Assembly: GCA_020723405.1 (NCBI GenBank)
Contig: DYIY01000010.1
Coordinates: 73,866 to 137,865 of the forward strand
DNA length: 64,000 nucleotides
From: Thiobacillus denitrificans
GTDB lineage: Bacteria; Pseudomonadota; Gammaproteobacteria; Burkholderiales; Thiobacillaceae
Direction: 5' to 3'
The translations under genes were made by a program, and so were the position numbers. The notes beneath the pieces were generated by a model. The model did no database searches and was not told where the DNA came from. It was given only the letters and a program-made list of their open reading frames with translations. Positions 1-35,920 of the stretch are shown in pieces (positions within the stretch are counted from its first letter, which is position 1; each line of letters opens with the position of its first letter).

Positions 1-180
1 GAGGAAGCCCGGCTCGGGTATTTTCTCGACAACTACCTGTCGGCCCTGGAAGCGCTCTGGCTGGAAGATCCGGGCAATATCGCCGTGCGCCACCTGCGTC
101 ACTATCTGACTTCTGAACCAATCCCCCCTGAAAAGGGGATAGCATCCAAAAACCGGGAAGAGGAGCCTGAGAACGTATGA
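1..180 (+). CDS. C-terminal end of an unidentified protein (partial)
   Basis: An open frame runs from the first base to TGA at 178-180 and gives 59 residues. The first part (YFLDNYLSALEALWLEDPG) looks like an amphipathic helical segment; the last 20 residues are charged and probably disordered. The stop overlaps the next gene's start as ATGA, so the two are likely translationally coupled and cotranscribed. I do not recognise the family from this fragment. Its position suggests it belongs to the same biosynthetic cluster as the adenylation enzyme that follows. Confidence 0.6.
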   Translation, partial: EEARLGYFLDNYLSALEALWLEDPGNIAVRHLRHYLTSEPIPPEKGIASKNREEEPENV

Positions 181-1736
181 ACAACAACACGCTGCATGCC
201 ACCGTGCTGAACCTGGATCCCGCCTGGACCGACCGGCCGGCGGTGAAGATGCAGAAGGGGGCGGTGACCTATGGCCAGTTCCGCGATCTGGCCGTGCGCC
301 TGGCCCAGCTGCTGGCCGATCGGGGCTGCCGGCGGGGTGACCGGGTGGCGGTCTGCCTGCCCAAGAGCATCGATTCCGTCACGGCCCTCATGGGCGTGAT
401 GCTGTCCGGTGCCGCCTACGTGCCGGTGGACCCCACGGCCCCCGCCCAGCGCCAGGCCACCATCGCCCGGCTGGCCGGGGCGAAGTTCATCATCACCACC
501 CCGGAGCTGGCGGCGGCCATGCGCGACGTGGCCGGCGAGCTGGAAGGCGAACCGACGCCCCAGATCGAAGTGGCCCCCGTGGGCATCGGCGACGGCATCC
601 GCGCCCTGGTGGCCGACGTGGCGCCCGTGGCGCCGGAAGCCGGCGCGGAAGTGGGCGCCGAAGACCTGGCCGCCATCCTGTTCACCTCCGGTTCCACCGG
701 CGTGCCCAAGGGCGTGAGCCTGACCCACGGCAACATCCTGGCCTTCGTGGACTGGACCGTGGACGCCTTCAAGTTCACCGCCGAGGACCGGCTCACCAGC
801 CACGCCCCCTTCCACTTCGATCTGTCCACCATGGACCTCTACACCACCTTCCGGGTGGGGGCCTCGGTGTTCATCCTGGACGAGGTGCTGGTGCGCTTCC
901 CCGCCGTGCTGGCCAAGATCATCGAAACCGAGAAGATCACCTCCTGGTACTCCGTGCCCACCGCCCTGCGCCTGCTGGAAGAGAAGGGCGCCCTGGGCCG
1001 CCGGGACCTGTCCAGCCTGCGGCAGATCTTCTTTGCCGGCGAGGTGTTCCCGGTGCCGGCCCTGCGCAAGGTCATGGAAGCCTTCCCGGGCGTGGAATTC
1101 ATCAATCTCTACGGGCCCACGGAAACCAACGTCTGCACCTATTACCGCATGCCCGGCGTGCCTGGCGACGACGTGCTGGACATCCCCATCGGCCTGCCCT
1201 GCGAGCACTACGTCATCACCATCCGCGACGAGGCGGGCAACATCCTGGCCCCGGGCCAGAGCGGCGAGATCTTCGTCGCCGGCCCCGGCTGCACCCCGGG
1301 CTACTGGCAGCGTCCGGACCTGACCGAGAAGTGCCATTTCGACGGGCGCATCGACACCTACCGCACCGGCGACTTCGGCTACTGGCTGCCCGACGGCAAC
1401 ATCCGCTTCCAGGGCCGCAAGGACGCCCAGGTGAAGATCCGTGGCCACCGGGTGGAGTTGATGGAGGTCGAGAACGTGATCCTCAACCATCCGGAGATCA
1501 AGGAAGCCGCCGCCGTGCTCCATTCGCCCCCGGACGGGGAGCAGGAACTCTATGCCTTCGTGGTGGCCCAGGCCGGCTGCGAGATGGACGAGACCAAGGT
1601 CTACGGCCAGTGTTCCAAGTTCCTGCCCCACTATGCCGAGCCCCACAAGGTGGTGATCATGGCCGACTTCCCCCGTACCTCCACCGGCAAGATCGACCGC
1701 CAGGGGCTCAAGGCCCTGTGCGGCGCGCCGGCCTGA
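177..1736 (+). CDS. Stand-alone amino-acid adenylation enzyme (AMP-forming)
   Basis: This 519-residue ANL-superfamily enzyme should activate a carboxylic acid, probably an amino acid, as the acyl-AMP and load it on a carrier protein. Visible core motifs are the P-loop-like FTSGSTGVPKG (about 169-179), the substrate-pocket FDLSTMDLY, YGPTE (about 312), the hinge region YRTGDFGYWLPDG (about 395-407) and the C-terminal lysine in STGKIDRQG (about 505). It has no condensation or carrier domain. The free carrier protein at 6383 and the carrier-protein-dehydrogenase-like flavoprotein at 5200 are the likely partners, as in PltF/PltL/PltE and PigI/PigG/PigA systems. DltA-type D-alanine ligases are the main alternative. 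Substrate identity cannot be read with confidence. Confidence 0.85.
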   Translation: MNNNTLHATVLNLDPAWTDRPAVKMQKGAVTYGQFRDLAVRLAQLLADRGCRRGDRVAVCLPKSIDSVTALMGVMLSGAAYVPVDPTAPAQRQATIARLAGAKFIITTPELAAAMRDVAGELEGEPTPQIEVAPVGIGDGIRALVADVAPVAPEAGAEVGAEDLAAILFTSGSTGVPKGVSLTHGNILAFVDWTVDAFKFTAEDRLTSHAPFHFDLSTMDLYTTFRVGASVFILDEVLVRFPAVLAKIIETEKITSWYSVPTALRLLEEKGALGRRDLSSLRQIFFAGEVFPVPALRKVMEAFPGVEFINLYGPTETNVCTYYRMPGVPGDDVLDIPIGLPCEHYVITIRDEAGNILAPGQSGEIFVAGPGCTPGYWQRPDLTEKCHFDGRIDTYRTGDFGYWLPDGNIRFQGRKDAQVKIRGHRVELMEVENVILNHPEIKEAAAVLHSPPDGEQELYAFVVAQAGCEMDETKVYGQCSKFLPHYAEPHKVVIMADFPRTSTGKIDRQGLKALCGAPA

Positions 1737-1758
1737 CGCTCCCGAGGAAAGGACGAAC

Positions 1759-2526
1759 TTGAAGATTGCGGTTTGCTTGAAGCAGGTGCCCTCCACCAGC
1801 GCGCCCCTGCAACTGGATGCCGCCACCCGCTGGGTGCGGGAGGCGGAAACGGCCTTCGAAACCAACGCCGCCGACAACAATGCGGTGGAAGCCGCCCTGG
1901 CCCTGCGGGACCAGTTGGGCGGCGAGGTCATCGTCGTCAGCCTGGGCCCGGAGCGGGCCACGGAAGCCCTGCGGGAAGCCCTGGCCAAGGGGGCCGACCG
2001 GGCCCTCCATCTGGTTTCCGATCAGGCCCCCGGCCTGGACCCGGCCACGGTGGCCGGCCTGCTGGCCGGCGCCCTGACTGCCGAGAACTGCGACCTGGTG
2101 CTGTGCGGCCTGCAATCCGACGACCAGGGCCACGGCCAGACCGGCGCCCTGCTGGCGGAAAAGCTGGGCTGGCCCCTGGCCAGCATCGCCGCCGCCCTGG
2201 AAGTGGACGGCGCCGGCAAGGCCCGGGTGAAGCGGGAACTGGAAGGCGGCTGGTACCAGTGGCTGGAACTGTCCTGCCCCTGCCTGGTGACCATCCAGGC
2301 CGGCATCAACAAGCCCCGCTACGCCGGCATGAAGGGCATGCTGGCCGCCAAGAAGAAACCCATCGCCAAGACCCCCGTGACCGATTATCCCGGCGGGCAG
2401 ACCCGTCAAGCCATGGATGAACTCTATTTCCCCCACAAGACCAAGCAGACCCGCATGCTGGAAGGCAGCCCCGAAGACGTGGCCGGCCAACTGGTGGCGG
2501 CCCTGAATCTGAGGGCCCGGCCATGA
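1759..2526 (+). CDS. etfB: Electron transfer flavoprotein beta subunit
   Basis: This 255-residue protein begins with MKIAVCLKQVPSTSAP, the standard EtfB/FixA N-terminus. It keeps the nucleotide-binding part (VIVVSLGPERATEAL, then LCGLQSDDQGHGQTG) that holds AMP in ETFs. With EtfA it accepts electrons from acyl-CoA-dehydrogenase-type flavoproteins. It starts at TTG (TTGAAGATT) after GAGGAAAGGAC. It overlaps etfA by ATGA at 2523-2526. Its place between an adenylation enzyme and a specific dehydrogenase suggests a pathway-dedicated ETF rather than a fatty-acid one; that is inference. Confidence 0.93.
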   Translation: MKIAVCLKQVPSTSAPLQLDAATRWVREAETAFETNAADNNAVEAALALRDQLGGEVIVVSLGPERATEALREALAKGADRALHLVSDQAPGLDPATVAGLLAGALTAENCDLVLCGLQSDDQGHGQTGALLAEKLGWPLASIAAALEVDGAGKARVKRELEGGWYQWLELSCPCLVTIQAGINKPRYAGMKGMLAAKKKPIAKTPVTDYPGGQTRQAMDELYFPHKTKQTRMLEGSPEDVAGQLVAALNLRARP

Positions 2527-3515
2527 GCGGCGGCATCCTGGTCATCGTCGAGGGTGCCGGAGAGGGCGGCAATGCCGGCATCAGCCGCGCCAGCCTGGAA
2601 ACCGTCGCCTACGCCCAGAGCCTGGGCGGCCCCCTGAAGCTGATCCTGCCCGGCGCCGCCAGCCCGGCCCAGGCCGACGCCCTGGCCGCCCTGGCGGTGG
2701 ACGAGGTGCTGCTGGCCGACTTCGCCTATCCCGCCGGGGGTGTGGCGGGCTACGACGGCGACGGCTACGTGGCCGTGCTGGCCGAGGCCATCCAGCGCCT
2801 GGCCCCCGACCAGGTGTTCCTGGCCCACAGCTACGGCGCCCGGGATTTCGCCCCCCGCCTGGCGGCCCGGCTGAACCTGACCCTGGTGAGCGACTGCATC
2901 GGCCAGGAAGGGCAGGGGGACGCCGTGGCCTACCTGCGCCAGGTGTTCCTGGGCCGGGCCCAGGCCAGGGTGAAGGTGGCCGGCGCCGGCCCGCGCCTGG
3001 TGTCGGTCCAGGCCGGCGTGGCCCGTCTGGAAGACCTGCGCCGGGGTGCCGCGCCGGCTCCGGTGTCCCGCAGCACCCTGGCCATGCCGGCGGCCCCCCG
3101 GGTGGTGGCCCAGGCCCCCATCCGGGAAGGGGAACGCAGCGTGGACCTGAGCCAGGCCCGGATCATCGTGGCCGTGGGGCGGGGCATCAAGACCCAGGAG
3201 AACATCGCCCTGGCGAAGAAGCTGGCCGACCTGCTGGGGGCCGAACTGGCCGCCAGCCGGGCCGTGTGTGACGAGGGCTGGCTGCCCATCGAACGCCAGG
3301 TGGGCAGTTCCGGCCAGACCGTGGCCCCGGCCCTGTACATCGCCATCGGCATTTCCGGGGCCGTGCAGCACCTGGTGGGCATGAAAACCTCGGAAACCAT
3401 CGTGGCCATCAACAAGGACGCCAACGCCCCCATCTTCAAGGTGGCGGACTACGGCATCGTGGGCGACCTGTTCCAGGTGGTGCCCGCCCTGATCGCCGCC
3501 CTGGAAGGGGCCTGA
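2523..3515 (+). CDS. etfA: Electron transfer flavoprotein alpha subunit
   Basis: This 330-residue EtfA/FixB carries the FAD-binding C-terminal domain with the family signature GSSGQTVAPALYIAIGISGA (about 260-280), followed by QHLVGMKTSETIVAINKD. It forms the ETF heterodimer with the preceding gene product, with which it overlaps by 4 bp. It passes electrons to the ETF:quinone oxidoreductase encoded 5 bp downstream. Length is normal for the family. The tight overlaps place etfB, etfA and the oxidoreductase in one transcript with the adenylation enzyme. Confidence 0.94.
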   Translation: MSGGILVIVEGAGEGGNAGISRASLETVAYAQSLGGPLKLILPGAASPAQADALAALAVDEVLLADFAYPAGGVAGYDGDGYVAVLAEAIQRLAPDQVFLAHSYGARDFAPRLAARLNLTLVSDCIGQEGQGDAVAYLRQVFLGRAQARVKVAGAGPRLVSVQAGVARLEDLRRGAAPAPVSRSTLAMPAAPRVVAQAPIREGERSVDLSQARIIVAVGRGIKTQENIALAKKLADLLGAELAASRAVCDEGWLPIERQVGSSGQTVAPALYIAIGISGAVQHLVGMKTSETIVAINKDANAPIFKVADYGIVGDLFQVVPALIAALEGA

Positions 3516-3520
3516 GAGCC

Positions 3521-5158
3521 ATGGAGCGGGAACGCCTGGACGCGGAAGCGGTCATCGTCGGCGCAGGGCCGGCGGGGCTGGCCTGCGCCCTGCATCTGGC
3601 CCGGCTGGTGGCCGAACACAATGCCCAGGGCAGGATGCCCGCCATCGACCCGGAGGGCATCTTCGTCCTGGAAAAGGGCGCCGAACTGGGCATGCACAGC
3701 CTGTCCGGCGCGGTGATGGATCCCCGGGCCCTGGCGGAACTGGAGCCGGATTACCTGGCCCAGGGCGCGCCCCTGGAGGCCCCGGTCAGCGAAGACCACC
3801 TGTTCCACCTCAGCGCCAGCGGCAGCCGGCGCCTGCCCGTGATCCCCGCCGCCCTGCGCAACGAGGGCAACCACATCATCTCCCTGGGCCGCCTGGTGCA
3901 GTGGCTGGGGGGCCGGGCCGAGGCTGCCGGGGTCAACCTGTTCCCCGGCACCGCCGCCGCCGGCCTGGTGCTGGAAGAGGGCCGGGTGTGCGGCGTCATC
4001 ACCGACGACAAGGGCCTGGACAAGGCGGGTGAGCCCCAGGCCAATTTCGAGCCGGGTTACGAACTGCGCGCCAAGGTCACCGTCTGCGCCGAAGGCGCCC
4101 GGGGCTCCCTGGCGGGCCAGTTGATCCGGGAATTCCAACTGGATGCCGGGAGCAATCCCCAGGCCTATGGCCTGGGCCTCAAGGAAGTCTGGGACATTCC
4201 CGCCGGCCGGGTGAAGGCGGGCACGGTCTGGCACAGCTTCGGCCATCCCCTGCCCGGCGACATGCAGGGGGGTGGCTGGATGTACGCCCTGTCCGAGACC
4301 CGGGTGTCCCTGGGCCTGGTGGTGGGCCTGCATTATTCCGACCCCGGCTTCCAGCCCCACACCGCCCTGCAACGCTACAAGCAGCATCCCCTGCTGGCCG
4401 GCCTGCTGGACGGGGGCACCCTGGTCCGCTACGGGGCCAAGACCCTGGCCAAGGGCGGCTACTGGGCCCTGCCCAGGCTCTCCGCCCCGGGGGCTTTGCT
4501 GGTGGGGGATTCCGCCGGCTTCCTGGATGGCATGCGCCTCAAGGGCGTGCACATGGCCATCAAGAGCGGCATGCTGGCCGCCGAGGCGGCCTATGCCGCC
4601 CTGGGCGCGGCAGACCCGGCCGCCGCCGACCGGGCCCTGGCGGGTTACCGGGAGCGCTTCGAGGCCAGCTGGATGAAGGCCGACCTGTGGCGGGGCCGCA
4701 ATTACCACCAGGCCTTCCAGCATGGGGTGAGCCGGGGCCTGTTGCCCTCCCTGGTGCAGGGCCTGCGGGCCCGCCAGGGCAACCGGCCGGCCCACGCCTA
4801 CCTGCGCCCCGGCGGGTCGGCGCCGGCCCCCTTCGTGGCCGACGGCAAGCTGGCCCAGGACCGGCTCACCAGCGTCTATCACTCGGGCACCGGCCATCGG
4901 GAAGACCAGCCGATCCATCTCAAGGTGGAGAGCGACACCCTCTGCCTGCAATGCAACAGCGAATTCGGCAGTCCCTGCCAGCATTTCTGCCCGGCGGGGG
5001 TCTACGAATGGGCAGCCGACGGCGGGGGAGCGGGGCGCCTGCGCATCAATGCCGCCAACTGCCTGCACTGCAAGACGTGCGATATCATGGACCCATACCA
5101 GAACATCGCCTGGACGCCGCCGGAAGGCGGCGGGGGTCCCCAGTACGAAGGCATGTGA
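3521..5158 (+). CDS. Electron transfer flavoprotein:ubiquinone oxidoreductase
   Basis: This 545-residue FAD and [4Fe-4S] enzyme oxidises reduced ETF and reduces quinone at the membrane. It has an N-terminal dinucleotide-binding GAGPAGLACALHLA (about 13-26) and a second FAD segment, LLVGDSAGFLDGMRLKGVHM. The C-terminal cluster region has FCPAGVYEW followed by NCLHCKTCDIMDP (about 510-522), giving the family's four cluster cysteines. The length matches bacterial and mitochondrial ETF-QO. Having it directly beside etfBA and an acyl-CoA-dehydrogenase-like gene gives a complete route from dehydrogenase to the quinone pool within one operon. Confidence 0.92.
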   Translation: MERERLDAEAVIVGAGPAGLACALHLARLVAEHNAQGRMPAIDPEGIFVLEKGAELGMHSLSGAVMDPRALAELEPDYLAQGAPLEAPVSEDHLFHLSASGSRRLPVIPAALRNEGNHIISLGRLVQWLGGRAEAAGVNLFPGTAAAGLVLEEGRVCGVITDDKGLDKAGEPQANFEPGYELRAKVTVCAEGARGSLAGQLIREFQLDAGSNPQAYGLGLKEVWDIPAGRVKAGTVWHSFGHPLPGDMQGGGWMYALSETRVSLGLVVGLHYSDPGFQPHTALQRYKQHPLLAGLLDGGTLVRYGAKTLAKGGYWALPRLSAPGALLVGDSAGFLDGMRLKGVHMAIKSGMLAAEAAYAALGAADPAAADRALAGYRERFEASWMKADLWRGRNYHQAFQHGVSRGLLPSLVQGLRARQGNRPAHAYLRPGGSAPAPFVADGKLAQDRLTSVYHSGTGHREDQPIHLKVESDTLCLQCNSEFGSPCQHFCPAGVYEWAADGGGAGRLRINAANCLHCKTCDIMDPYQNIAWTPPEGGGGPQYEGM

Positions 5159-5199
5159 CCCCGGTCACTTCCCATCAATCGTCATGGATAAGAAACAAC

Positions 5200-6345
5200 A
5201 TGGATTTTGACCTGAACGAAGACCAGAAAGCGATGCGCAAGGAGCTCATCGCCTTTGCCCAGAACGAACTGAACGACGACATGATCGGCCGGGACAAGGC
5301 GGGACTGTTCTCCCGGGAAGCCTGGAAGAAGTGCTGCGACTTCGGCATCACCGGCTTTCCCTTCCCTGCCGAATACGGCGGCAGCGACGGCGACATCGTC
5401 ACCACCACCGCCATGATGGAAGCCCTGGGTTACGGCTCCAAGGACGCCGGCCTGCTGTTCAGCATCAACGCCCAGATGTGGAGCGTGATGATGCCCATCT
5501 GGCGCTTCGGCACCGAGGAACAGCGGCAGCGTTATCTGCCCGGCCTGTGCAACGGCGACATCATCGGCGCCCACGGCATGTCCGAGCCCGATTCCGGATC
5601 CGACGCCTTCAGCCTGCGCACCACGGCGGTGAAGGACGGCGACAACTACGTGCTCAACGGGGTGAAGACCTGGTGCAGCAACGCCCCCGTGGGCGACGTG
5701 TTCATCATCTTCGCCAACACCGACAAGATGGGCGGCTTCATGGGCGTCACCGCCTTCGTGGTGGACCGGGACACCCCCGGCCTCAAGGTGAGCAAGGAAA
5801 TCAGCAAGATGGGCCTCAAGACCTCCCCCATGGGCGAGGTGATCCTGGAGGACTGCGTGGTGCCCGCCTCCGCCCGCCTGGGCAAGGAGCGCCAGGGCGC
5901 CAAGATCTTCAACGACTCCATGGAATGGGAGCGGGCCTGCATCCTGGGCTTCAACCTGGGGGCCATGCAGCGGCAACTGGAAACCTGCGTCAAGTACGCC
6001 AACGAGCGGCAGCAGTTCAAGAAGCCCATTTCCCAGTACCAGTCCGTGTCCAACAAGATCGTGGACATGAAGGTGCGCCTGGAGACCTCCCGCTGGCTGC
6101 TCTACAAGGTGGCCTGGGCCAAGCAGAACAACGTGGACGGCACCATGGACGCCGCCATCGCCAAGCTCTACCTGAGCGAGGCCTGGGTCCAGTCCTGCCT
6201 GGACGCCATCCAGATCCACGGCGGCTACGGCTACACCACGGAATACGAACTGGAGCGGGAACTGCGCGACGCCGTCGGCGGCAAGCTCTACTCCGGCACT
6301 TCGGAAATCCAACGCAACATCATCGCCCGCGCTTTGGGCATGTGA
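5200..6345 (+). CDS. Acyl-CoA-dehydrogenase-like flavoprotein, probable aminoacyl-carrier-protein dehydrogenase
   Basis: This 381-residue protein has the whole acyl-CoA dehydrogenase fold, beginning MDFDLNEDQKAMRKEL. FAD and substrate segments include SEPDSGSDAFSLRT and the C-terminal GTSEIQRNIIARALGM. The base position used by medium-chain dehydrogenases (Glu before GT) is Ser365 here (YSGT). A glutamate at 244 (SMEWERAC) instead sits where isovaleryl-CoA dehydrogenase keeps its helix-G base. From memory, PigA/PltE/RedW-type prolyl-carrier-protein dehydrogenases share this arrangement and the NAP..DVFII and QSVSN.I.DMK.RLE segments. With the adenylation enzyme and carrier protein nearby, oxidation of an aminoacyl thioester is the best guess. 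The ordinary acyl-CoA alternative remains open. An upstream in-frame extension is rejected because it overlaps the ETF-QO gene and lies before the family N-terminus. Confidence 0.85.
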   Translation: MDFDLNEDQKAMRKELIAFAQNELNDDMIGRDKAGLFSREAWKKCCDFGITGFPFPAEYGGSDGDIVTTTAMMEALGYGSKDAGLLFSINAQMWSVMMPIWRFGTEEQRQRYLPGLCNGDIIGAHGMSEPDSGSDAFSLRTTAVKDGDNYVLNGVKTWCSNAPVGDVFIIFANTDKMGGFMGVTAFVVDRDTPGLKVSKEISKMGLKTSPMGEVILEDCVVPASARLGKERQGAKIFNDSMEWERACILGFNLGAMQRQLETCVKYANERQQFKKPISQYQSVSNKIVDMKVRLETSRWLLYKVAWAKQNNVDGTMDAAIAKLYLSEAWVQSCLDAIQIHGGYGYTTEYELERELRDAVGGKLYSGTSEIQRNIIARALGM

Positions 6346-6382
6346 CTTTCGTATTTTTTCATTTCTCGTTGAAAGGAAAGCC

Positions 6383-6634
6383 ATGAGCAACACCACCGAA
6401 ACCGTCCTGGACTGGGTCAAGGCCAACTGTCTGAAGGACAAGCCCAATCTGGTCCTGAATGCGGATACCTCCTTCCTGTCCAACAACGTGCTGGACTCCC
6501 TGTCCTTCCTGCATCTGGTGACCTTCCTGGAGCAGCAGTTCTCCGTGAAGGTGGACGAAGACGACATGTCTCCGGACAACTTCGAGAGCGCCACCACCGT
6601 GGCCGCCCTGGTGGACCGGCTGCGCGGCGCCTGA
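6383..6634 (+). CDS. Free acyl/peptidyl carrier protein
   Basis: This 83-residue protein has the carrier-protein four-helix pattern and the phosphopantetheine attachment site NNVLDSLSFLHLV, with Ser39 in the DSL motif. A good ribosome-binding site (GAAAGGAAAGCC) precedes the ATG. The acidic stretch VKVDEDDMSPDNF is typical of helices II-III of carrier proteins. It lies 37 bp after the dehydrogenase and probably carries the substrate activated at 177-1736 and oxidised at 5200-6345. No phosphopantetheinyl transferase is encoded in the window, so the cell's general one must activate it. Confidence 0.9.
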   Translation: MSNTTETVLDWVKANCLKDKPNLVLNADTSFLSNNVLDSLSFLHLVTFLEQQFSVKVDEDDMSPDNFESATTVAALVDRLRGA

Positions 6635-6767: not shown

Positions 6768-7730
6768 ATGAGCAACGCTCCCTCCAAAGCCCAGCCGGCC
6801 TCCCTACCCCGTGGTGAGGGTGATCGTCTGGAACGATTCCATCGCCTGAAGCGGTGGCTATCCCTGATTCCCTATGGGGTGGGTGCCCGGGTGTACGCCA
6901 TGATCACGGCGAATCCCCTGACCCAGGCGGTCATGGGCAAGCACCGCCGACGCATGCGGGCCTTCATGGCCGAACAGGGCCTGACCTTCCCCCTGCGGCA
7001 GACCTTCGCCCGCTACCTGGCCACCAACTACATGGCCGCCTGGCGGCTTTCCAGCCTGTCCCGTTGCGGCCCGGCCGAATTCGACCGCTGGGTGGGCATC
7101 GACGGTTACGAACATTTCCTGTCCCTGCGCCAGCAAGGCAAGCCGGTCATCCTCTGCAACAGCCATTACGGCAGCGGCAAGACCATCCTGCTGGCCCTCA
7201 TGCGCCGGGGCCACGACATCCACTCCCTGGACCGCCAGGACGTGTTTTCCTTCTTCGGCATCCAGGATCAGGGCAAGGTCATCAGTATCAACCTGGGTCC
7301 CAAAGAGCAGAATTTCATGCTCAAGCAGATCTTCAAGGCCCGCAACGCCCTGGCTGCCGGCGGCGTGCTGCACATCGCCGGAGACGGCACCCGGGGGTTG
7401 TCCGGCAAGCCCCTGCCTTTCCTGGGCCGGGAACGGAGCTTTCCGGGCAGCGTGGCGGAACTGGCTCTGGCCACCGGCGCCGCCATCCTGCCCGTCTTCG
7501 GCGTGCTGGACGGGAGGGGGGGCGTGCGCCTGTCCATCCTGCCGGCCCTGGCCATGCCCGACCCGGCCCTGCCCCGGGAGGATCAGGTGGCCTTCATCAA
7601 CGCCCAGTACTGCGCCCTGCTGGAAGCCCGCTGGCGGGCCGATCCGGGCTCCATCTTCAAGAGCGAATACGGCATCTACGCCAAGCTGCCCAAGCTGGCC
7701 GACGCCGCCACCAGGACCTCCCAGCCATGA
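6768..7730 (+). CDS. LpxL/HtrB-like lysophospholipid-type acyltransferase with altered catalytic motif
   Basis: This 320-residue protein resembles LpxL-family acyltransferases. It has a hydrophobic segment near 30-50, a catalytic block NSHYGSGKTILL (131-142) and a downstream DGTRGLSGKPLPFLGRE block. The usual HX4(D/E) motif is H133-Y-G-S-G-K138 here, so the acid is replaced by lysine. It could transfer an acyl or aminoacyl group from the upstream carrier protein to a lipid or sugar, but the altered motif makes the chemistry uncertain. The 133 bp before it (6635-6767) contain two direct copies of GCGGCAGGCAG (6666-6676 and 6699-6709) and no gene. The stop overlaps the next ATG by 4 bp. Confidence 0.7.
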   Translation: MSNAPSKAQPASLPRGEGDRLERFHRLKRWLSLIPYGVGARVYAMITANPLTQAVMGKHRRRMRAFMAEQGLTFPLRQTFARYLATNYMAAWRLSSLSRCGPAEFDRWVGIDGYEHFLSLRQQGKPVILCNSHYGSGKTILLALMRRGHDIHSLDRQDVFSFFGIQDQGKVISINLGPKEQNFMLKQIFKARNALAAGGVLHIAGDGTRGLSGKPLPFLGRERSFPGSVAELALATGAAILPVFGVLDGRGGVRLSILPALAMPDPALPREDQVAFINAQYCALLEARWRADPGSIFKSEYGIYAKLPKLADAATRTSQP

Positions 7731-8650
7731 CCGTCGCCACCGGGCCCATGCCCAACTTCCTCATCATCGGGGCCGCCCGCACCGGTACTTCGTCCCTCTA
7801 CGAGTACATGCGCCAGCATCCGGACATCTATTTCAGTCCGGTGAAGGAGCCCATGTACTTCGCCATGGAAGGGAAGAAACCGGATTTCCGGGGTCCCGGG
7901 GACGACCTGGAAATCAACCGCAAGTCGGTGACCGACCTGGCCGCCTACCAGGCATTGTTCGCCGGCGCCCAGGGGAAAAAGGCCGTGGGCGAGGCCTCGG
8001 CCAATTACCTGTATTCGGACGTGGCGGCGGCGCGCATCCATGAGGCCGTGCCCGACGCCCGGCTCATCGCCGTGCTGCGCAATCCCGTGGAGCGGGCCTA
8101 TTCCAGCTTCCTCTACATGATCCGCGACCGGCGGGAGCCCCTGCGCGATTTCGGCGAGGCCCTGGCCCAGGAGCCCCAGCGCATCCGCGACCACTGGGAA
8201 CACATCTGGCACTACGCCGCCATGGGCTTCTACCACCAGCAGTTGCAGCGCTACTACGAACGTTTCGACAAGTCCCGCATCCGGGTCTATCTCAACGAGG
8301 ACATGAAGAAGGACGCCCCGGGCCTGTTGAAGGACGTGTTCGGCTTTCTCGACGTGGACGACGGCTACGCCCCGGACACCTCGGTGACCTACAACGAGGG
8401 CGGCGTGCCCAAGCGCAAGATGCTCAACGCCCTCCTCACCCGGCCCAGCATCTTCAAGCGACTGCTGCGCCCCCTCATGCCCGCTGCGGCCATGAAGCTC
8501 TATACCAAGGTGAAGCACAGCAACCTGGACAAGCCCCCCCTGGATCCGGAAGTGCGGGCCCGCCTGGTGGCCCTCTACCGGGACGACGTGCTGAAGCTCC
8601 AGGACCTCATCGGCCGGGACCTGTCCCACTGGCTGGCGGACAAGCCATGA
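7727..8650 (+). CDS. Sulfotransferase family protein (first of three)
   Basis: This 307-residue protein starts at the ATGA overlap with the acyltransferase. It shows the PAPS 5'-phosphosulfate loop FLIIGAARTGTSSLYEYM (about 11-28) and the 3'-phosphate block LIAVLRNPVERAYSSFLYM, typical of carbohydrate sulfotransferases. It would move sulfate from PAPS to a sugar hydroxyl or amine in the cytoplasm. Being first in a run of three related genes inside a polysaccharide cluster argues for a sulfated polymer. The acceptor cannot be deduced. Confidence 0.85.
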   Translation: MTVATGPMPNFLIIGAARTGTSSLYEYMRQHPDIYFSPVKEPMYFAMEGKKPDFRGPGDDLEINRKSVTDLAAYQALFAGAQGKKAVGEASANYLYSDVAAARIHEAVPDARLIAVLRNPVERAYSSFLYMIRDRREPLRDFGEALAQEPQRIRDHWEHIWHYAAMGFYHQQLQRYYERFDKSRIRVYLNEDMKKDAPGLLKDVFGFLDVDDGYAPDTSVTYNEGGVPKRKMLNALLTRPSIFKRLLRPLMPAAAMKLYTKVKHSNLDKPPLDPEVRARLVALYRDDVLKLQDLIGRDLSHWLADKP

Positions 8651-9480
8651 GCCGGCGGCGGCCCAACTTCCTCTACCTGGGGCCAGACAAGTCGGGCTCC
8701 TCCTGGCTGTTCGAGGTGCTGCGCCACCATCCGGACTGCTTTGTGCCCGCCTGCAAGGACGTCTATTACTTCGACGAGCACTACGACAAGGGCATGGACT
8801 GGTACCTGGACTTCTTCCGGGACGCCCGGCCCGACGTGCCGGCCATGGGGGAACTGTCCCACAGCTACCTGTTTTCCATGGACGCCGCCGACCGCATCCG
8901 CCGGGACCTGCCCGGGGTAAAGCTCATGGCCAGCCTGCGCCAGCCCGTGGAGCGCTGCTATTCCCATTACCTCTACCTGGTGTCCAGCGGCCTGGTGACC
9001 ACCTCCTTCGCCGAGACCATCGACAACCGGCCGGGCCTCACCCGCAGCAGCTACTACGCCAAGTCTGTTGAAGGCTACCTGGAACGCTTCGGGGCCGAGC
9101 AGTTCAAGGTGCTGTTCTTCGACGACCTGAAGCAGGATCCCCGGGGCTACGCCACCCAGGTCTACGACTTCCTGGGCCTGCCTTTCAACGAGGCCTTCGA
9201 CTACGGCAAGAAGGTGCGGGAAGCCCGGGCCGCCCGCAGCTTCTTCATGGCCCGCCTGGCCAAGCAGGGGGCCCTCATGGCGCGCAAGCTGGGCCTGGTG
9301 AACCTGGTGGGGGCGGTGAAGCACGGCTTCGCCGCCAAGCTCCTCTACCGGCCCATGAAGAAGGGCGAGACGCCGAAGATGGACCCGGAGGTGGGCAAGC
9401 GCCTCCTGGAGCGCTACATCCCCGACATCGAGGCCACGGAGAAGCTCCTGGGCGTCAACCTGGACCACTGGAAGCGCTGA
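8647..9480 (+). CDS. Sulfotransferase family protein (second of three)
   Basis: This 277-residue protein overlaps the previous gene by ATGA. The 5'-phosphosulfate loop is FLYLGPDKSGSSWLFEVL (about 8-25) and the 3'-phosphate block is LMASLRQPVERCYSHYLYL. DxxYFDEHYDKGMDWY-like aromatic text after the loop is common in heparan-type sulfotransferases. It is clearly diverged from its two neighbours rather than a recent duplicate, so each enzyme may sulfate a different position or sugar. Confidence 0.85.
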   Translation: MSRRRPNFLYLGPDKSGSSWLFEVLRHHPDCFVPACKDVYYFDEHYDKGMDWYLDFFRDARPDVPAMGELSHSYLFSMDAADRIRRDLPGVKLMASLRQPVERCYSHYLYLVSSGLVTTSFAETIDNRPGLTRSSYYAKSVEGYLERFGAEQFKVLFFDDLKQDPRGYATQVYDFLGLPFNEAFDYGKKVREARAARSFFMARLAKQGALMARKLGLVNLVGAVKHGFAAKLLYRPMKKGETPKMDPEVGKRLLERYIPDIEATEKLLGVNLDHWKR

Positions 9481-9482: not shown

Positions 9483-10409
9483 ATGGCGAACCTGCCCAAC
9501 ACCTTCATCGTCGGCCAGCCCAAGTCGGGCACCAGCGCCCTGTTCGCCTTCCTCAAGGACCACCCGGACGTCTGCGTGGGGGCCACCAAGGAACCCCAGT
9601 ACTTCAACACCGACCTGAATTCCCAGTATTTCCACCTGGCCCGCCTGGAGCGCAACGAGGCCAACTACCTGAACCTGTTCGCCCACTGCACGGGCCAGAA
9701 GGTGGTCATGGAGGCCTCCACCGGCTACCTCTATTCCCAGGTGGCGGCCCGGGCCATCCACAATTTCAATCCCGCCGCCAAGATCATCATGATGCTGCGG
9801 GAGCCGGTGGATTTCCTCTTCACCTATCACATGCAATTGCAGCGCAACAGTTGCACCTTCGAGACCGAGCCCGACTTCCTCAAGGCCATGAGCCTGGAGG
9901 CGGACCGCCGCCAGGGCCGCCAGATCCCGGGCAACTGCTTCGACGCCAGCTTCCTCTACTACCGGGCCCGGGCGGCCTACACGGAACAGGTGCGCCGCTT
10001 CCTGGAGGTCTTCCCCCGGGAGCAGGTGCTGATCCTCATCCACGACGACTTCAAGGCCGACAACGAGAAAACCTACGACCAGGTGGCGGCCTTCCTGGGC
10101 CTGGACCCCAACTGGCGGCCCCAGTTCCGGGTGGTGAACCAGAAGGTGGGGGTGCGCTTCCGGGCCCTGAAGCAGGCTTCCGACCAGTTCCTCTTCCCCA
10201 TCAAGCAGGCCATCAAGCCCCTGGTGCCCGGCAGCTTCTACAAGGCCGGGCGCAGCCTCTACCGCAAGCTGTTCTTCCGCACCAAGGGCCTGCCGGTGCT
10301 GCTGCCCGAGGACCGGCAGCGGCTCAAGGGCGAGTTCCGCGAGGAAGTGGCCCGGCTCTCCGAACTGCTGGACCGGGATCTGGCCAGCCTGTGGGGCTAT
10401 GAGCGTTGA
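9483..10409 (+). CDS. Sulfotransferase family protein (third of three)
   Basis: This 308-residue protein begins 2 bp after the previous stop. The PAPS loop is FIVGQPKSGTSALFAFLKDH (about 8-27) and the 3'-phosphate block is IIMMLREPVDFLFTYHMQL, with Asp-Phe replacing the more usual Glu-Arg after the proline. The C-terminal half is rich in basic residues, as expected for an anionic cofactor or acceptor. Its last 13 bases overlap the convergent glycosyltransferase gene on the other strand. Confidence 0.83.
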   Translation: MANLPNTFIVGQPKSGTSALFAFLKDHPDVCVGATKEPQYFNTDLNSQYFHLARLERNEANYLNLFAHCTGQKVVMEASTGYLYSQVAARAIHNFNPAAKIIMMLREPVDFLFTYHMQLQRNSCTFETEPDFLKAMSLEADRRQGRQIPGNCFDASFLYYRARAAYTEQVRRFLEVFPREQVLILIHDDFKADNEKTYDQVAAFLGLDPNWRPQFRVVNQKVGVRFRALKQASDQFLFPIKQAIKPLVPGSFYKAGRSLYRKLFFRTKGLPVLLPEDRQRLKGEFREEVARLSELLDRDLASLWGYER

Positions 10410-11536
10410 TGCCCTGCCCAGTCGTGCAGACCGTCGAACACCCGGGAAAGATCGGCGCGGAACCGGTCCATGCCGTGGCGGGCATTGACCTCGTCGCGCA
10501 GATGCCGGTAGGCCGCCGTGTCGAAATCCCTGCCCAGGGCCAGGATGCGCTCGGCGATCTGGCCGGGCTGGCGCGGGTCGAAACGCCACGGACTGGGCAC
10601 CGGGTAGTCCTCCAGCAGGCCCAGGTCGGAGATCAGGAAGGGCTTGTTGAGGTGCAGGGTCTCCAGCAGGATCAGGGGCAATCCTTCGTAGAGGGAGGGG
10701 ATCAGCATCAGGTCCACCTGCTCGGTCAGGAAGGGCACCAGTTGGGGCTTCTGCATCCAGCCGTGCAGGAGGATCCTGTCCTCCATGCCGGCGGCACGGA
10801 TTTCCCCTTCCAGCCGATCCCGGTCCGGGCCGTCGCCCACCACGTGGATGCGTACTTCCCGGCGGCCGGCCAGGGCCTGGACCAGGGGCACCAGCACCCC
10901 CTGATTCTTCTGCTTGAAGACCAGGCGGCCCACCACGGCAATGTCCAGGGGGCCTTCGCCGGGAAAGACCACGTCCCCTTCCGGCGGCGCGAAGTCGAAG
11001 TCCGCCGGGTTGCCGATCACGTGGATGGCCTGGTCCCTGCGGGTGAAGCGGGCCAGCAGCCGGGCCTGGTGGGGGCTGATGGTGATGTAGGCGCCGGGCA
11101 GCCGGTAGATGAGCTTGCACAGCAGATCCCGGGGCAGGGCGAAACGGTTGTTGAGTTCCGTGTTGTTGTTGCCGAAGGGAATGTAGGACACGCAGGGCAG
11201 ACCTGCCGCCCGGGCCGCCAGCAGGCCGCGCACCCCGGATTCCGCATAACCTTGCGCGACCACCACCAGATCCGGCGCCGCCGCTTCCATGAGCCGGCGG
11301 GCATGGCTCACCTGCCAGCCGCCGTCGGCCATGCACAGGCCTTTCGTCTTGGTGTGGAAGGGCAGGGGGGTGAGGGCGACCGATTCCGGAAGGTGTTCCC
11401 GGAAAGCCGGTGTGTGATGCAGGCCCCCCACCTGCCAGCCCAGGTCCGCCAGGCCGGCCATGAAGCGCACGGTCATGATTTCATGGCCGCCGAACACTTC
11501 GGAATCGTTGTAGAAGAGGACGCGCTTGGCCGTCAT
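10397..11536 (-). CDS. GT4-like glycosyltransferase
   Basis: This 379-residue protein has a two-domain GT-B layout. The N-terminal part has VLFYNDSEVFGGHEIMTVRF, the usual glycine-rich acceptor-side loop. The C-terminal donor domain has VGRLVFKQKNQGVLVPLVQA, then MLIPSLYEGLPLILLETLHL, containing the E-x7-E type nucleotide-sugar motif. It should add a sugar from a nucleotide-sugar donor to a lipid-linked intermediate. It is the only minus-strand gene in the polymer cluster and the only obvious glycosyltransferase. Other transferases, including the initiating one, must lie outside the window. Confidence 0.87.
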   Translation of the reverse strand: MTAKRVLFYNDSEVFGGHEIMTVRFMAGLADLGWQVGGLHHTPAFREHLPESVALTPLPFHTKTKGLCMADGGWQVSHARRLMEAAAPDLVVVAQGYAESGVRGLLAARAAGLPCVSYIPFGNNNTELNNRFALPRDLLCKLIYRLPGAYITISPHQARLLARFTRRDQAIHVIGNPADFDFAPPEGDVVFPGEGPLDIAVVGRLVFKQKNQGVLVPLVQALAGRREVRIHVVGDGPDRDRLEGEIRAAGMEDRILLHGWMQKPQLVPFLTEQVDLMLIPSLYEGLPLILLETLHLNKPFLISDLGLLEDYPVPSPWRFDPRQPGQIAERILALGRDFDTAAYRHLRDEVNARHGMDRFRADLSRVFDGLHDWAGHQRS

Positions 11537-11741
11537 GGCGGCGGTTTCCGGAAGAGTTGCGGGGCGCCCATTCTAGCGAAGCCCGAGGTGCTGAAGTCGC
11601 CCCCCTCAAGAATTGAAGTGATTTATCCGATATGGGCTGTAATGCCCGTGTCTTAAAGGTTCTTTTAACTTAATGAAGTATGATTGCCCGGGTTTGCCAC
11701 AAGCAGCCTGCGTGGCGATGGACAAAGACAGAGGAAACAAG

Positions 11742-14693: not shown

Positions 14694-14757
14694 TGTCCTT
14701 CAGGCTGACACAGGTGTGCATATCCGTTGAGAACATTCCTTCCAAGGGTGAGTAACA

Positions 14758-15792
14758 ATGACCGAAACGAGCAATACCGGAACTTCGATTCCTGCGGATA
14801 TGGTTGAAGCCGCAAAGGTGGTCGGTTCCCCCCGCCTGCCCAACGGCTACTACCTGCAACTGGGCGCTCCCGAGGAGGAAATGCACCTCCTGGATCTGTG
14901 GTATGCCATCACCTCCAGAAAACTGCTCATCTTCCTGGTGGTGCTGGGCTTCACCCTGTTCGGCGCCCTGCTGGCCTGGGTGATTCCCATGAAGTGGAAA
15001 GGTGAGGTGACGGTGTCGGTGGTGCCCCAGAGCAAGACCACCACCACCAGCACCTCTTCGACCACCACCCCGCCGCCGGTGGATCTCAACATGCCCTACA
15101 CCTCGGATGAAATCATCGGCTACGTCCAGGGCCGGGACTTCATCTACCGCTTCATCCAGAAATACGACCTGCTGCCCATCCTGTTCGAGAAGGACTGGAA
15201 TGCCGACAAGAAGGAATGGCAGCTCAGCACGGTGCACCGCTGGATCTATGGCGATACGATTTCCCTGTGGGATGGCTATGACAAGTTCAGCGGCGTGCTG
15301 GACGTGAGTACCGACGACGAAACCAGTCTGACCACCGTGACCGTGACCTGGACCGATGCCAAGCTGGCCGCCGACTGGGCCACCAAGGTGGTGGAGATGC
15401 TCAACGTCGAGATGCGCCAGAAGGCCGTCCAGGAATCCGAAGCCATCCTGAAGGAACTGGAATCCCAGTTGAAGCGCACCAGCGTGCTGGAGCTGCAACA
15501 GTCCATCTACGCCCTCATGGAAGTGCAGATGGCCAAGGTGGCGTCGGCCCGGGTCCATCCCGAGTACGTTTTCAAGGTGGTGGACAGCGCGGTGGTGGAG
15601 GACGATCAGAACATTCCCTACCTGCAACTCATCCTGATCATCGTCAGTTCCTTCCTGGGCGTGGTGGTGGCTCTGGGCCTGGTGCTCCTTCTGCACACCA
15701 TCGCCAAGCAGCCGGCCCAGCCCAAGCCGCGCAAGAAGCGGCGGGGCGGCAAGGCGGCGGGCGAAGCGGCGGCCCCTGAAGGCCAATCCTGA
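14758..15792 (+). CDS. Wzz-type chain-length determinant protein
   Basis: This 344-residue inner-membrane protein has the polysaccharide co-polymerase layout. A cytoplasmic N-terminus comes first, then a transmembrane helix at about 58-80 (LLIFLVVLGFTLFGALLAWV). A large periplasmic part with coiled-coil character follows (AVQESEAILKELESQLKR), and a second helix lies at about 288-315. A proline-Thr-rich stretch (TTTSTSSTTTPPP) lies just after the first helix. No tyrosine-kinase domain is attached, which fits a Wzz partner for Wzx/Wzy assembly. The C-terminal tail is Lys/Arg-rich (PKPRKKRRGGK). A strong terminator lies 6 bp downstream. Confidence 0.85.
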   Translation: MTETSNTGTSIPADMVEAAKVVGSPRLPNGYYLQLGAPEEEMHLLDLWYAITSRKLLIFLVVLGFTLFGALLAWVIPMKWKGEVTVSVVPQSKTTTTSTSSTTTPPPVDLNMPYTSDEIIGYVQGRDFIYRFIQKYDLLPILFEKDWNADKKEWQLSTVHRWIYGDTISLWDGYDKFSGVLDVSTDDETSLTTVTVTWTDAKLAADWATKVVEMLNVEMRQKAVQESEAILKELESQLKRTSVLELQQSIYALMEVQMAKVASARVHPEYVFKVVDSAVVEDDQNIPYLQLILIIVSSFLGVVVALGLVLLLHTIAKQPAQPKPRKKRRGGKAAGEAAAPEGQS

Positions 15793-15798
15793 TTGACC

Positions 15799-15826
15799 GG
15801 GCGCACCTGGGGGTGCGCCCTTTTTT
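15799..15826 (+). terminator. Rho-independent terminator after the export/chain-length genes
   Basis: A perfect 9-bp stem (GGGCGCACC at 15799-15807 and GGTGCGCCC at 15812-15820) with a 4-nt loop is followed by six T. It ends the transcript of the SLBB and Wzz-like genes. The flippase gene starts only 12 bp later and so probably needs its own promoter or read-through. Confidence 0.92.
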
Positions 15827-15838
15827 CGGCGTCGCCAG

Positions 15839-17260: not shown

Positions 17261-17263
17261 GCG

Positions 17264-33917: not shown

Positions 33918-33926
33918 TTCCGGAGT

Positions 33927-33951
33927 GCCGGTCCGCCCCGGGCGGGCCGGC
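33927..33951 (+). other. Intercistronic hairpin dsrA-dsrB
   Basis: GCCGGTCCGCCC (33927-33938) can pair with GGGCGGGCCGGC (33940-33951), with one G-U pair and a tight apex. No T-run follows. It probably modulates mRNA processing or stability between dsrA and dsrB rather than ending transcription. Confidence 0.6.
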
Positions 33952-33998
33952 GTTGTTGCAAGGTTATCGATCTCATCTCATATAGGTTGGAGATAAGC

Positions 33999-35072: not shown

Positions 35073-35078
35073 CCCGCA

Positions 35079-35103
35079 CCGGCCCGGGATGACCCCGGGC
35101 CGG
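35079..35103 (+). other. Intercistronic hairpin dsrB-dsrE
   Basis: Perfect 10-bp arms CCGGCCCGGG (35079-35088) and CCCGGGCCGG (35094-35103) flank ATGAC. There is no T-run. Like the hairpins after dsrA and dsrC, it could protect the 3' end of the upstream message or limit read-through. Confidence 0.7.
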
Positions 35104-35138
35104 CGGTGGTTCTGTTAATCGGAGATAGGGATATTTAA

Positions 35139-35498
35139 ATGAAGATCGGCATTATGGTTAGTGAAGGTCCGTACAACCACCAGGCCAGCGATACCGCTTA
35201 CCTGTTTGCCCGTACGGCCATCGAAAAGGGACACAGCGTGCCCCGCGTGTTCTTCTATCACGACGGCGTGAACAACTCGACCAGGCTCACCGAGCCCCCC
35301 CAGGATGACCGCAACGTGGTCAACCGCTGGTCCAAGCTGGCGGAAGACCATGGCGTGGATCTGGTGGTCTGCGTGGCTGCCGGCCTGCGCCGCGGCATCA
35401 AGGACGATATCCTGGCTCCCGGCTTCCGCATTTCCGGTCTGGGCCAGTTGGTGGAAGCCGGCATCCAGTGCGATCGCCTGGTGACTTTCGGCGATTAA
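35139..35498 (+). CDS. dsrE: Sulfur-carrier protein DsrE
   Basis: This 119-residue subunit of the DsrE2F2H2 sulfurtransferase starts MKIGIMVSEGPYNHQ. It carries the persulfide-accepting cysteine at position 78 (LVVCVAAGLRRG), the same position as the active cysteine of Allochromatium DsrE. It passes sulfur from TusA-type carriers to DsrC. It is followed 12 bp later by dsrF. Presence of dsrEFH marks sulfur oxidation rather than sulfate reduction. Confidence 0.96.
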   Translation: MKIGIMVSEGPYNHQASDTAYLFARTAIEKGHSVPRVFFYHDGVNNSTRLTEPPQDDRNVVNRWSKLAEDHGVDLVVCVAAGLRRGIKDDILAPGFRISGLGQLVEAGIQCDRLVTFGD

Positions 35499-35510
35499 GG
35501 GGAACACGAA

Positions 35511-35909: not shown

Positions 35910-35920
35910 GGGATACGAAC

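What the first reader, a model, noticed from the sequence alone, without database searches (positions are those of the whole stretch)
177..6634. Self-contained aminoacyl-carrier-protein dehydrogenase module wired to the quinone pool
An adenylation enzyme, a free carrier protein and a dehydrogenase with the helix-G glutamate (E244) and no medium-chain-type base (Ser365) match the three-part logic of pyrrole-2-carboxyl formation (PltF/PltL/PltE, PigI/PigG/PigA). Unlike those systems, this operon also encodes both ETF subunits and ETF:quinone oxidoreductase, so electrons would go to respiration. It leads into acyltransferase, sulfotransferase and polymer-export genes, which suggests an oxidised aminoacyl group on a surface polymer or lipid. 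I know of no described system with this whole set.
Basis: partly seen in the sequence, partly recalled or inferred. Interest (0 to 1): 0.8.

Follow-up and report, generated by a model that had tools for sequence, protein, structure and literature searches.

The report
Halogenated-pyrrole module wired to respiration
A bacterium carries a gene set that probably turns the amino acid proline into a halogen-bearing pyrrole ring on a small carrier protein, probably sends the electrons to its respiratory chain through co-encoded electron carriers, and sits inside a locus for making and exporting a surface sugar polymer.

Summary
The adenylating enzyme is PltF-like, with pocket code DLMYFALVCK against DLLYLALVC in PltF. 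The carrier and dehydrogenase also match prolyl-to-pyrrole systems. The dehydrogenase falls in one clade (100/100) with three solved prolyl-carrier dehydrogenases, apart from 21 other acyl-CoA-dehydrogenase-type rows. ETF beta, ETF alpha and a canonical ETF:quinone oxidoreductase are in the operon.

The window cuts the cluster. Just upstream lie a flavin-dependent halogenase nearest to the pyrrole brominase Bmp2 and two more LpxL-like genes. The likely intermediate is a halogenated pyrrole-2-carboxyl group.

In the genus such a dehydrogenase was found in 2 of 23 genomes and ETF alpha in 3 of 23. None of 42 other prolyl-type loci showed ETF genes. The module seems to bring its own electron outlet. 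Polysaccharide genes flank it in the window's genome and follow it in genus mate G480.

Transfer of the pyrrole to a glycan or lipid is inferred only; the acyltransferases lack the HX4D/E acid. I rate it a new variant of thiotemplated halopyrrole biosynthesis. Nothing was tested at the bench.

The parts
1..180 (+). 3' end of LpxL-like acyltransferase AT2 (full gene C36:73086-74045, i.e. from window position -779). Upstream and outside the window: AT1 (window -1803 to -892) and the Bmp2-like flavin-dependent halogenase HAL (window -3194 to -1923)
   Evidence: AT2 is 39% identical to AT1; AT2 start codon chosen by eye; AT2 itself was not scanned against Pfam
177..1736 (+). Stand-alone adenylation enzyme, predicted L-proline:carrier-protein ligase (code DLMYFALVCK)
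1759..2526 (+). ETF beta subunit, without the bifurcating GDTAQVG segment
2523..3515 (+). ETF alpha subunit
3521..5158 (+). ETF:quinone oxidoreductase, canonical, ubiquinone-binding and 4Fe-4S domains
5200..6345 (+). Prolyl-carrier-protein dehydrogenase (E244, S365)
6383..6634 (+). Free carrier protein, phosphopantetheine site Ser39 in VLDSLSF
6768..7730 (+). LpxL-like acyltransferase AT3, HX4K in place of HX4D/E
7727..8650 (+). Sulfotransferase ST1
   Evidence: overlaps AT3 by 4 bp
8647..9480 (+). Sulfotransferase ST2
9483..10409 (+). Sulfotransferase ST3
10397..11536 (-). Glycosyltransferase (GT4), context
11673..14693 (+). Wza-like SLBB polysaccharide export protein, context; homologue at 59-62% identity only in G480 among 23 genus genomes
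14758..18661 (+). Wzz-like, Wzx-like flippase and Wzy_C polymerase/ligase-like genes, context

Best explanation
A thiotemplated halopyrrole pathway with its own respiratory outlet. The A enzyme activates L-proline as prolyl-AMP and loads it on the free carrier protein. The dehydrogenase, using E244 as base, oxidises prolyl-S-ACP, most likely by four electrons, to pyrrole-2-carboxyl-S-ACP. Its FADH2 is reoxidised by the co-encoded ETF and ETF:quinone oxidoreductase, so the electrons enter the quinone pool. The upstream Bmp2-like halogenase then chlorinates or brominates the carrier-bound pyrrole. One or more of the three LpxL-like proteins moves the halopyrrolyl group from the carrier to an acceptor, most likely a sugar or lipid intermediate of the exopolysaccharide that the flanking WbaP/Wza/Wzz/Wzx/Wzy-type genes build and the three sulfotransferases may sulfate. 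Shown by sequence only: identity of the parts, prolyl-type pocket and clade, gene order, co-inheritance. Inferred: four rather than two electrons, ETF as the real acceptor, halogenation, and above all the acceptor molecule.
For: Dehydrogenase: best PDB match 4irn, prolyl-ACP dehydrogenase, 456 bits; 6cxt 334 and 5zw0 329; best other acyl-CoA dehydrogenase 291. NCBIfam best PigA 456 and RedW 433 bits, next AcrC 328. Clade of 43 rows with the three solved enzymes, 100/100. E244/S365 shared with them. A enzyme: TIGR01733 amino-acid adenylation over its cut-off (366 of 317); pocket segment best matches the L-proline ligases 6o6e 179 and 7thn 149 bits, next 8xjz 143; code agrees with PltF at 7 of 9 covered positions, and G480 has the same code as the window. 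Carrier: best PDB match is chain A of 6cxt, then 2my5 and PigG 5gxt. Halogenase: best PDB matches 5bva 286, its triple mutant 5bul 279, then 5buk 160 and PltA 5dbj 157 bits (that 5bva is Bmp2 and 5buk Mpy16 is recalled); WAWMIP, FVDPIFSLG and the aligned lysine (roles of motifs and Lys recalled). Electron path: ETF-QO 443 bits to 2gmh over full length with the cluster cysteines. Co-inheritance: ETF-QO over cut-off in 2 of 61 family genomes, 0 of the 11 other genus members of that sample, which did not include G480; ETF alpha in 3 of 23 genus genomes, G000, G438, G480; the dehydrogenase above 29% identity only in G000 and G480 of 23. 6 of 6 order relatives with the module have an ETF-QO on another contig. 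G480: HAL-A-ETFb-ETFa-ETFQO on one contig and ETFQO-DH-ACP-AT3-ST1-ST2-ST3-GT-Wza on another, without AT1/AT2 between HAL and A. A second unit in G480, HAL-AT1-AT2-carrier, ties halogenase, acyltransferases and carrier together. Glycan setting.
Against: NCBIfam equivalog cut-offs for PigA (500) and RedW (650) are not reached. The closest solved enzyme by score, 4irn (AnaB), is known to me (recalled) for a two-electron oxidation. 20 of 29 wider genomes with a relative of the dehydrogenase gave no PF05187 ETF-QO match (completeness of these genomes not told), so such enzymes can probably work with another acceptor. Trp158 does not separate ETF users: W in 5 of 43 prolyl-type and 9 of 21 other rows. 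ETF alpha scores higher to bifurcating-type ETFs (175, 172) than to human ETF (156). The acyltransferases lack the HX4D/E acid in both genomes. A terminator-like stem follows the halogenase (6 such sites in the region against 3.0 expected) and the gap to AT1 is 119 bp, so the halogenase may be a separate transcript. At the three Bmp2 pocket places the window's enzyme has L, F, A and one G480 copy L, F, V, so the Bmp2 pocket is only partly kept. The second HAL-AT-carrier unit of G480 has none of the screened polysaccharide genes on its contig.
Confidence: 0.6

Rival explanations
1. Free small molecule: the pathway makes a halogenated pyrrole natural product (tetrabromopyrrole-like or a pyrrolyl lipid), and the polysaccharide genes are only neighbours. 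The LpxL-like proteins acylate a lipid or small alcohol, or act as offloading enzymes.
For: Nearest halogenase is Bmp2, whose product leaves as free tetrabromopyrrole (passage in PMC5577590). Two of the three Bmp2 pocket residues are kept (Y302/F306/A345 -> L/F/A). G480 has a HAL-AT1-AT2-carrier unit without the screened polysaccharide genes. Several relatives of the module lie beside further adenylation domains, as in NRPS clusters.
Against: No thioesterase family came up among the proteins scanned. Polysaccharide genes flank the module on both sides in G000, and a glycosyltransferase and Wza follow it in G480; a Wza of at least 59% identity occurs in only these two of 23 genus genomes.
Confidence: 0.35
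2. Two-electron variant: the dehydrogenase stops at a dehydroprolyl (1-pyrroline) thioester as AnaB does, and the halogenase acts on another substrate.
For: Highest PDB score is to 4irn, AnaB.
Against: In the tree AnaB pairs with L015, a locus that itself carries two halogenase-like genes, not with the window enzyme. The halogenase is nearest to pyrrole halogenases and lies beside the module in both genomes.
Confidence: 0.15
3. O2-linked dehydrogenase: the dehydrogenase is reoxidised by O2 or another partner, and the ETF/ETF-QO serve something else.
For: No ETF genes were found beside 42 relatives, and 20 of 29 wider genomes gave no PF05187 ETF-QO match.
Against: ETF genes lie between the A enzyme and the dehydrogenase in G000 and, as far as its separate contigs show, in G480. 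The only other acyl-CoA-dehydrogenase-like protein found in G000 is 25% identical and shows neither catalytic glutamate by eye; ETF clients of other families were not looked for.
Confidence: 0.15
4. Ordinary fatty-acyl or branched-chain acyl-CoA dehydrogenase operon with its ETF chain.
For: ETF and ETF-QO are the usual partners of such enzymes (recalled); 3 of 107 genes flanking other acyl-CoA-dehydrogenase-type loci are ETF.
Against: Tree, catalytic residues, A-pocket code and carrier protein; no thiolase, hydratase or 3-hydroxyacyl-CoA dehydrogenase among the neighbours scanned.
Confidence: 0.02

Closest known systems
Bmp1-4 bromopyrrole pathway (pentabromopseudilin/tetrabromopyrrole)
   Same: Proline ligase, carrier protein, flavin dehydrogenase and flavin halogenase acting on carrier-bound pyrrole (passage in PMC5577590); halogenase and carrier are nearest to Bmp-type chains in the PDB (chain identities partly recalled)
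   Different: No thioesterase on the 83-aa carrier; ETF beta/alpha and ETF-QO in the operon; LpxL-like acyltransferases, sulfotransferases and polysaccharide export genes
PltF/PltL/PltE(+PltA) and PigI/PigG/PigA
   Same: A code, free carrier, dehydrogenase clade
   Different: Respiratory chain components in the operon; no polyketide synthase among the neighbours scanned
Clorobiocin CloN4/N5/N3 with CloN2, CloN1, CloN7
   Same: Pyrrole-2-carboxyl made from proline on one carrier, passed to a second carrier and put on a deoxysugar (passage in PMC11218499); G480 also has two carriers
   Different: Methyl instead of halogen on the pyrrole; a single deoxysugar of an antibiotic; acyltransferases of another kind (recalled)
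AnaB/AnaC/AnaD (anatoxin-a)
   Same: Prolyl-ACP oxidation; 4irn is the top PDB hit
   Different: Two-electron product, no such halogenase and no ETF in the cluster (all recalled)
LpxL/PatA-type acyltransferases (PF03279)
   Same: AT1 and AT3 pass the Pfam cut-off; the conserved His is kept
   Different: HX4R/K instead of HX4D/E in AT1-3 of both genomes

Membership tests
Thiotemplated prolyl-to-pyrrole systems | Stand-alone A enzyme with proline pocket code | tested here: met
   DLMYFALVCK; PltF DLLYLALVC, PigI DLFYIAWVC
Thiotemplated prolyl-to-pyrrole systems | Free carrier protein with DS(L/I) phosphopantetheine site | tested here: met
   PF00550 26.2 bits over cut-off 20.8; Ser39
Thiotemplated prolyl-to-pyrrole systems | Dehydrogenase in the prolyl-carrier clade with helix-G Glu and no MCAD-type Glu | tested here: met
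Thiotemplated prolyl-to-pyrrole systems | Conversion of prolyl-ACP to pyrrolyl-ACP | not testable with these tools
   needs enzyme assay
NCBIfam equivalogs PigA (NF053553) and RedW (NF045652) | Score above curated cut-off | tested here: not met
   456 of 500 and 433 of 650 bits; of the kind, but not an equivalog of either
NCBIfam carrier AmcB (NF058660) | Score above curated cut-off | tested here: not met
   47 of 80 bits
Pyrrolyl-carrier halogenases (Bmp2, Mpy16, PltA) | Best similarity to this group, WxWxIP, FxxPxxSxG and catalytic Lys | tested here: met
   roles of the motifs and Lys recalled; gene lies outside the window
Pyrrolyl-carrier halogenases (Bmp2, Mpy16, PltA) | Halogenation of pyrrolyl-S-carrier | not testable with these tools
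   needs enzyme assay
Canonical ETF:quinone oxidoreductase | Ubiquinone-binding and 4Fe-4S domains, cluster cysteines, full-length match | tested here: met
   PF21162, PF05187; 2gmh alignment
Bifurcating ETF | GDTAQVG segment in ETF beta as in 6fah and 5ol2 | tested here: not met
   window has SDDQGHGQTG; the ETF alpha score leans the other way
LpxL/LPLAT acyltransferases | HX4(D/E) catalytic pair (recalled as defining) | tested here: not met
   HX4R, HX4R, HX4K in AT1, AT2, AT3 and the same in G480
Fatty-acid or branched-chain acyl-CoA dehydrogenases | Grouping with such enzymes | tested here: not met

The most novel reading that the evidence does not exclude
A sulfated exopolysaccharide, or its lipid-linked precursor, of an apparently sulfur-metabolising bacterium is decorated with halogenated pyrrole-2-carboxyl groups. 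They are made on a carrier protein by an acquired module that includes a complete respiratory electron outlet because most of the host genus lacks ETF, and handed over by a variant LpxL-like acyltransferase family without the usual catalytic acid. Prolyl-carrier modules in glycan-type loci of other phyla (L021, L026, L028, L030, L031) would make heteroaromatic decoration of surface glycans a recurrent, undescribed theme.
Probability: 0.28. Interest if true: 0.82.

Novelty: new variant of a known kind. Interest (0 to 1): 0.62.

Why it matters
It links a secondary-metabolite reaction (proline to pyrrole) to the quinone pool through a co-encoded ETF and ETF-QO. The electron acceptor of prolyl-carrier dehydrogenases is not settled to my knowledge, and here it becomes directly testable. 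If the halopyrrole ends up on a surface polymer, that would be a new class of glycan decoration and a new role for LpxL-like proteins. The comparison with relatives gives a simple hypothesis: lineages without housekeeping ETF import the electron outlet together with the pathway.

Tried and rejected
Ordinary acyl-CoA dehydrogenase reading: rejected by tree, residues and A code. Trp158 (equivalent of MCAD Trp166, recalled; one search found no paper for it) as a marker of ETF use: rejected, W in 5 of 43 prolyl-type and 9 of 21 other rows. Fold model of AT3 from its single sequence: mean pLDDT 37, useless, no fold search made. Promoter scan: 1 found, 0.8 expected. Literature: no paper held joins these terms usefully: prolyl, dehydrogenase, pyrrole, ETF, carrier protein (0 papers); pyrrole-2-carboxyl with electron transfer flavoprotein (1 unrelated by its title); pyrrole-2-carboxylic acid with polysaccharide and decorated (1 unrelated by its title); pyrrole, halogenase, acyl carrier protein, prolyl, exopolysaccharide (one conference book); flavin-dependent halogenase with lysophospholipid acyltransferase and gene cluster. 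These cover only the held open-licence library. Glycan link in other phyla: of 97 genes flanking 29 prolyl-type loci (up to two per side, A- and DH-like genes and genes over 900 aa left out) 4 match Glycos_transf_1 and 3 Sulfotransfer_1; among 107 genes flanking 29 other loci neither is among the 25 of 149 families shown, the lowest of which has 2 members. So it is a recurrent minority pattern, not a rule.


Full report
Observation. Pfam and NCBIfam give AMP-binding/amino-acid adenylation, ETF, ETF_alpha, ETF-QO, acyl-CoA dehydrogenase and PP-binding. The dehydrogenase starts at 5200. E244 and Ser365 are as described. The next genes are an LpxL-like protein and three sulfotransferases, then on the opposite strand a glycosyltransferase, then a Wza-like export protein, Wzz-like, Wzx-like and Wzy_C genes.

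The window cuts the cluster. The window is C36:73866-137865 of a 4.15-Mb genome, G000. In the 3.2 kb before it lie a flavin-dependent halogenase (HAL) and two more LpxL-like proteins, AT1 and AT2. AT2 ends at window position 180 and overlaps the A gene by 4 bp. Before these come a WbaP-like initiating sugar transferase, a glycosyltransferase, a PEP-CTERM protein and a sulfatase. The order is HAL-AT1-AT2-A-ETFb-ETFa-ETFQO-DH-ACP-AT3-ST1-ST2-ST3, flanked by polysaccharide genes.

Prolyl chemistry. The dehydrogenase's best solved relatives are 4irn (prolyl-ACP dehydrogenase, 456 bits), 6cxt (labelled butyryl-CoA dehydrogenase, 334) and 5zw0 (L-prolyl-carrier dehydrogenase, 329); the best other acyl-CoA dehydrogenase has 291 bits. 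That 4irn is AnaB is recalled; passages of PMC10849742 name 6CXT as the Bmp3 structure. In a 64-row maximum-likelihood tree (53 of the 80 loci, six order relatives, G480, the window and the three PDB chains) 43 rows including the window and the three solved enzymes form one clade (UFBoot/SH-aLRT 100/100), apart from 21 other rows. Window and G480 pair (100/99), with Stappia L022 next (100/98). The three solved enzymes and the window have Glu at 244 and Ser at 365, while 19 of the 21 other rows have Glu at 365. L067, with Glu at 244 and Ala at 365 as in isovaleryl-CoA dehydrogenase (recalled), falls among the other rows, so the helix-G Glu alone does not make the clade. For the A enzyme the whole-protein search is led by multi-domain synthetases because their domain scores add up. 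With the pocket segment alone the top two hits are the L-proline ligases 6o6e and 7thn. The code, placed by alignment from remembered GrsA positions, is DLMYFALVCK; PltF (6o6e) reads DLLYLALVC, PigI (7thn) DLFYIAWVC; these two names are partly recalled; G480 is identical to the window. The carrier's best match is the carrier chain of 6cxt. Passages of PMC10849742 describe this three-part logic for RedW, PltE and Bmp3. Close relatives of the dehydrogenase are uncommon: 7 of 399 order genomes and 5 of 369 class genomes, the own genome counted in both (E<=1e-90).

Halogenase. Its best solved relatives are 5bva (286 bits), its triple mutant 5bul, 5buk and PltA 5dbj. It keeps WAWMIP, FVDPIFSLG and the aligned lysine. 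A review passage (PMC5577590) says that Bmp2 tetra-brominates and that Y302S/F306V/A345W makes it mono-halogenating. At these places the window's enzyme has L, F, A and the G480 copies L, F, A and L, F, V. I take this as a hint at multiple halogenation, not more.

Electron path. ETF-QO is canonical: 443 bits to 2gmh over the whole length, with the cluster cysteines. ETF beta matches the electron carrier 1o94_C best (155 bits) and lacks the GDTAQVG segment of 6fah and 5ol2. ETF alpha scores 175 and 172 to those bifurcating-type proteins and 156 to human ETF, so the type rests mainly on ETF beta and on the ETF-QO neighbour. In G000 one ETF alpha and one ETF-QO were found, and one other dehydrogenase-like protein at 25% identity that shows neither catalytic Glu by eye. 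In the family ETF-QO passes the cut-off in 2 of 61 genomes, G000 and G167, G480 not being in that sample; the G167 gene is 44% identical and sits beside ETF genes, with no prolyl-type dehydrogenase in its 20-kb stretch. ETF alpha is present in 3 of 23 genus genomes: G000, G438 and G480, which has two; 8 of the 23 are under 90% complete or over 5% contaminated. The dehydrogenase is present in the genus only in G000 and G480; other hits are 29% identical or less. Six of 6 order relatives with the module have an ETF-QO on another contig; of 29 genomes from other groups 9 have one and 20 gave no match. Around the prolyl-type dehydrogenase 0 of 38 and 0 of 4 other loci show ETF genes; some are cut short by contig ends and the sets may overlap. 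My inference: the module carries its own outlet because the host lineage mostly has none.

Conservation. G480 shows HAL-A-ETFb-ETFa-ETFQO on one contig and ETFQO-DH-ACP-AT3-ST1-ST2-ST3-(GT)-Wza on another, plus a second HAL-AT1-AT2-carrier unit on a third. AT1 and AT2 are absent between HAL and A there. The 135-aa gene before HAL in G000 also precedes HAL in G480 (79%, at the contig edge). dN/dS is 0.09-0.41 for the 13 genes. A Wza homologue of at least 59% identity exists in the genus only in G480; 5 of 23 genomes, G000 included, have any match at E<=1e-40. HAL matches at E<=1e-15 in 3 of 17 genus genomes searched: G000, G480 (93% and 79%) and G438 (30%).

Where does the group go? The LpxL-like proteins are the natural candidates to take an ACP-bound acyl group, and the second G480 unit binds them to halogenase and carrier. 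Yet AT1-3 in both genomes have HX4R/K instead of HX4D/E, so I do not file them as LpxL-type enzymes. AT2 was not scanned against Pfam, and its G480 counterpart gave no Pfam family. A precedent for proline-derived pyrrole-2-carboxyl on a sugar, with two carriers and an acyltransferase, is clorobiocin (passage in PMC11218499). Relatives of the module sit in glycan-type loci elsewhere: L021 with GT4, sulfotransferase and two Acyl_transf_3; L028 with two GT4, a hexapeptide transferase, sulfotransferase and polysaccharide deacetylase; L030 with GT4 and GNVR; L031 with UDP-sugar dehydrogenase, GT2, GT4 and Polysacc_synt; L026 with polysaccharide deacetylase, ABC and DegT (I chose these five loci by eye out of 29). 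The unselected count is modest.

Verdict. A real, conserved, prolyl-type module with a halogenase and a co-encoded respiratory outlet in a polysaccharide locus. The parts are known; the combination was not found in the paper searches I could make. The polymer reading is open.

Noticed in passing
L029, L033, L035, L036, L038, L040, L042, L043: A group of modules in which the A code is D(M/I)xYLGVQCK or close to it (L042 DILYLAVACK) and the dehydrogenase has Asp at 244 in 6 of 8 and Ala or Gly at 365 in 8 of 8. Eight of the 97 flanking genes of prolyl-type loci are ornithine cyclodeaminase-like, not matched to these loci. They may act on a different amino acid.
   Followed up: no
L021, L026, L028, L030, L031: Prolyl-carrier dehydrogenase modules inside glycan-type gene clusters in several phyla.
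   Followed up: partly
L139:9221-13017 (G480:C25): Second HAL-AT1-AT2-carrier unit in G480, next to a DUF1631/GGDEF/EAL protein, without A enzyme or dehydrogenase in view.
   Followed up: partly
L015:2188-10692 and 11187-17716: Order relative with two halogenase-like genes, LPLAT-like gene, MFS transporter, carrier, A enzyme and dehydrogenase, plus a TPR-sulfotransferase fusion and a further sulfotransferase, but no ETF genes in the stretch.
   Followed up: partly
L031:14863-16407: A enzyme with an odd pocket code DLFNHSISSK close to a prolyl-type dehydrogenase in a record titled Geobacter.
   Followed up: no
window 32616-43532: Two sulfite-reductase-type NIR_SIR proteins followed by genes that look by eye like a dsr sulfur-oxidation cluster.
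   Followed up: no
G480:C130:2977-4083 and 12698-12940: Another acyl-CoA-dehydrogenase-like protein (29% identical) and a second ETF alpha about 9 kb apart in G480.
   Followed up: no
L003:11972-11995: Terminator-like 8-bp stem just after the halogenase gene; 6 such sites found in the region against 3.0 expected.
   Followed up: no
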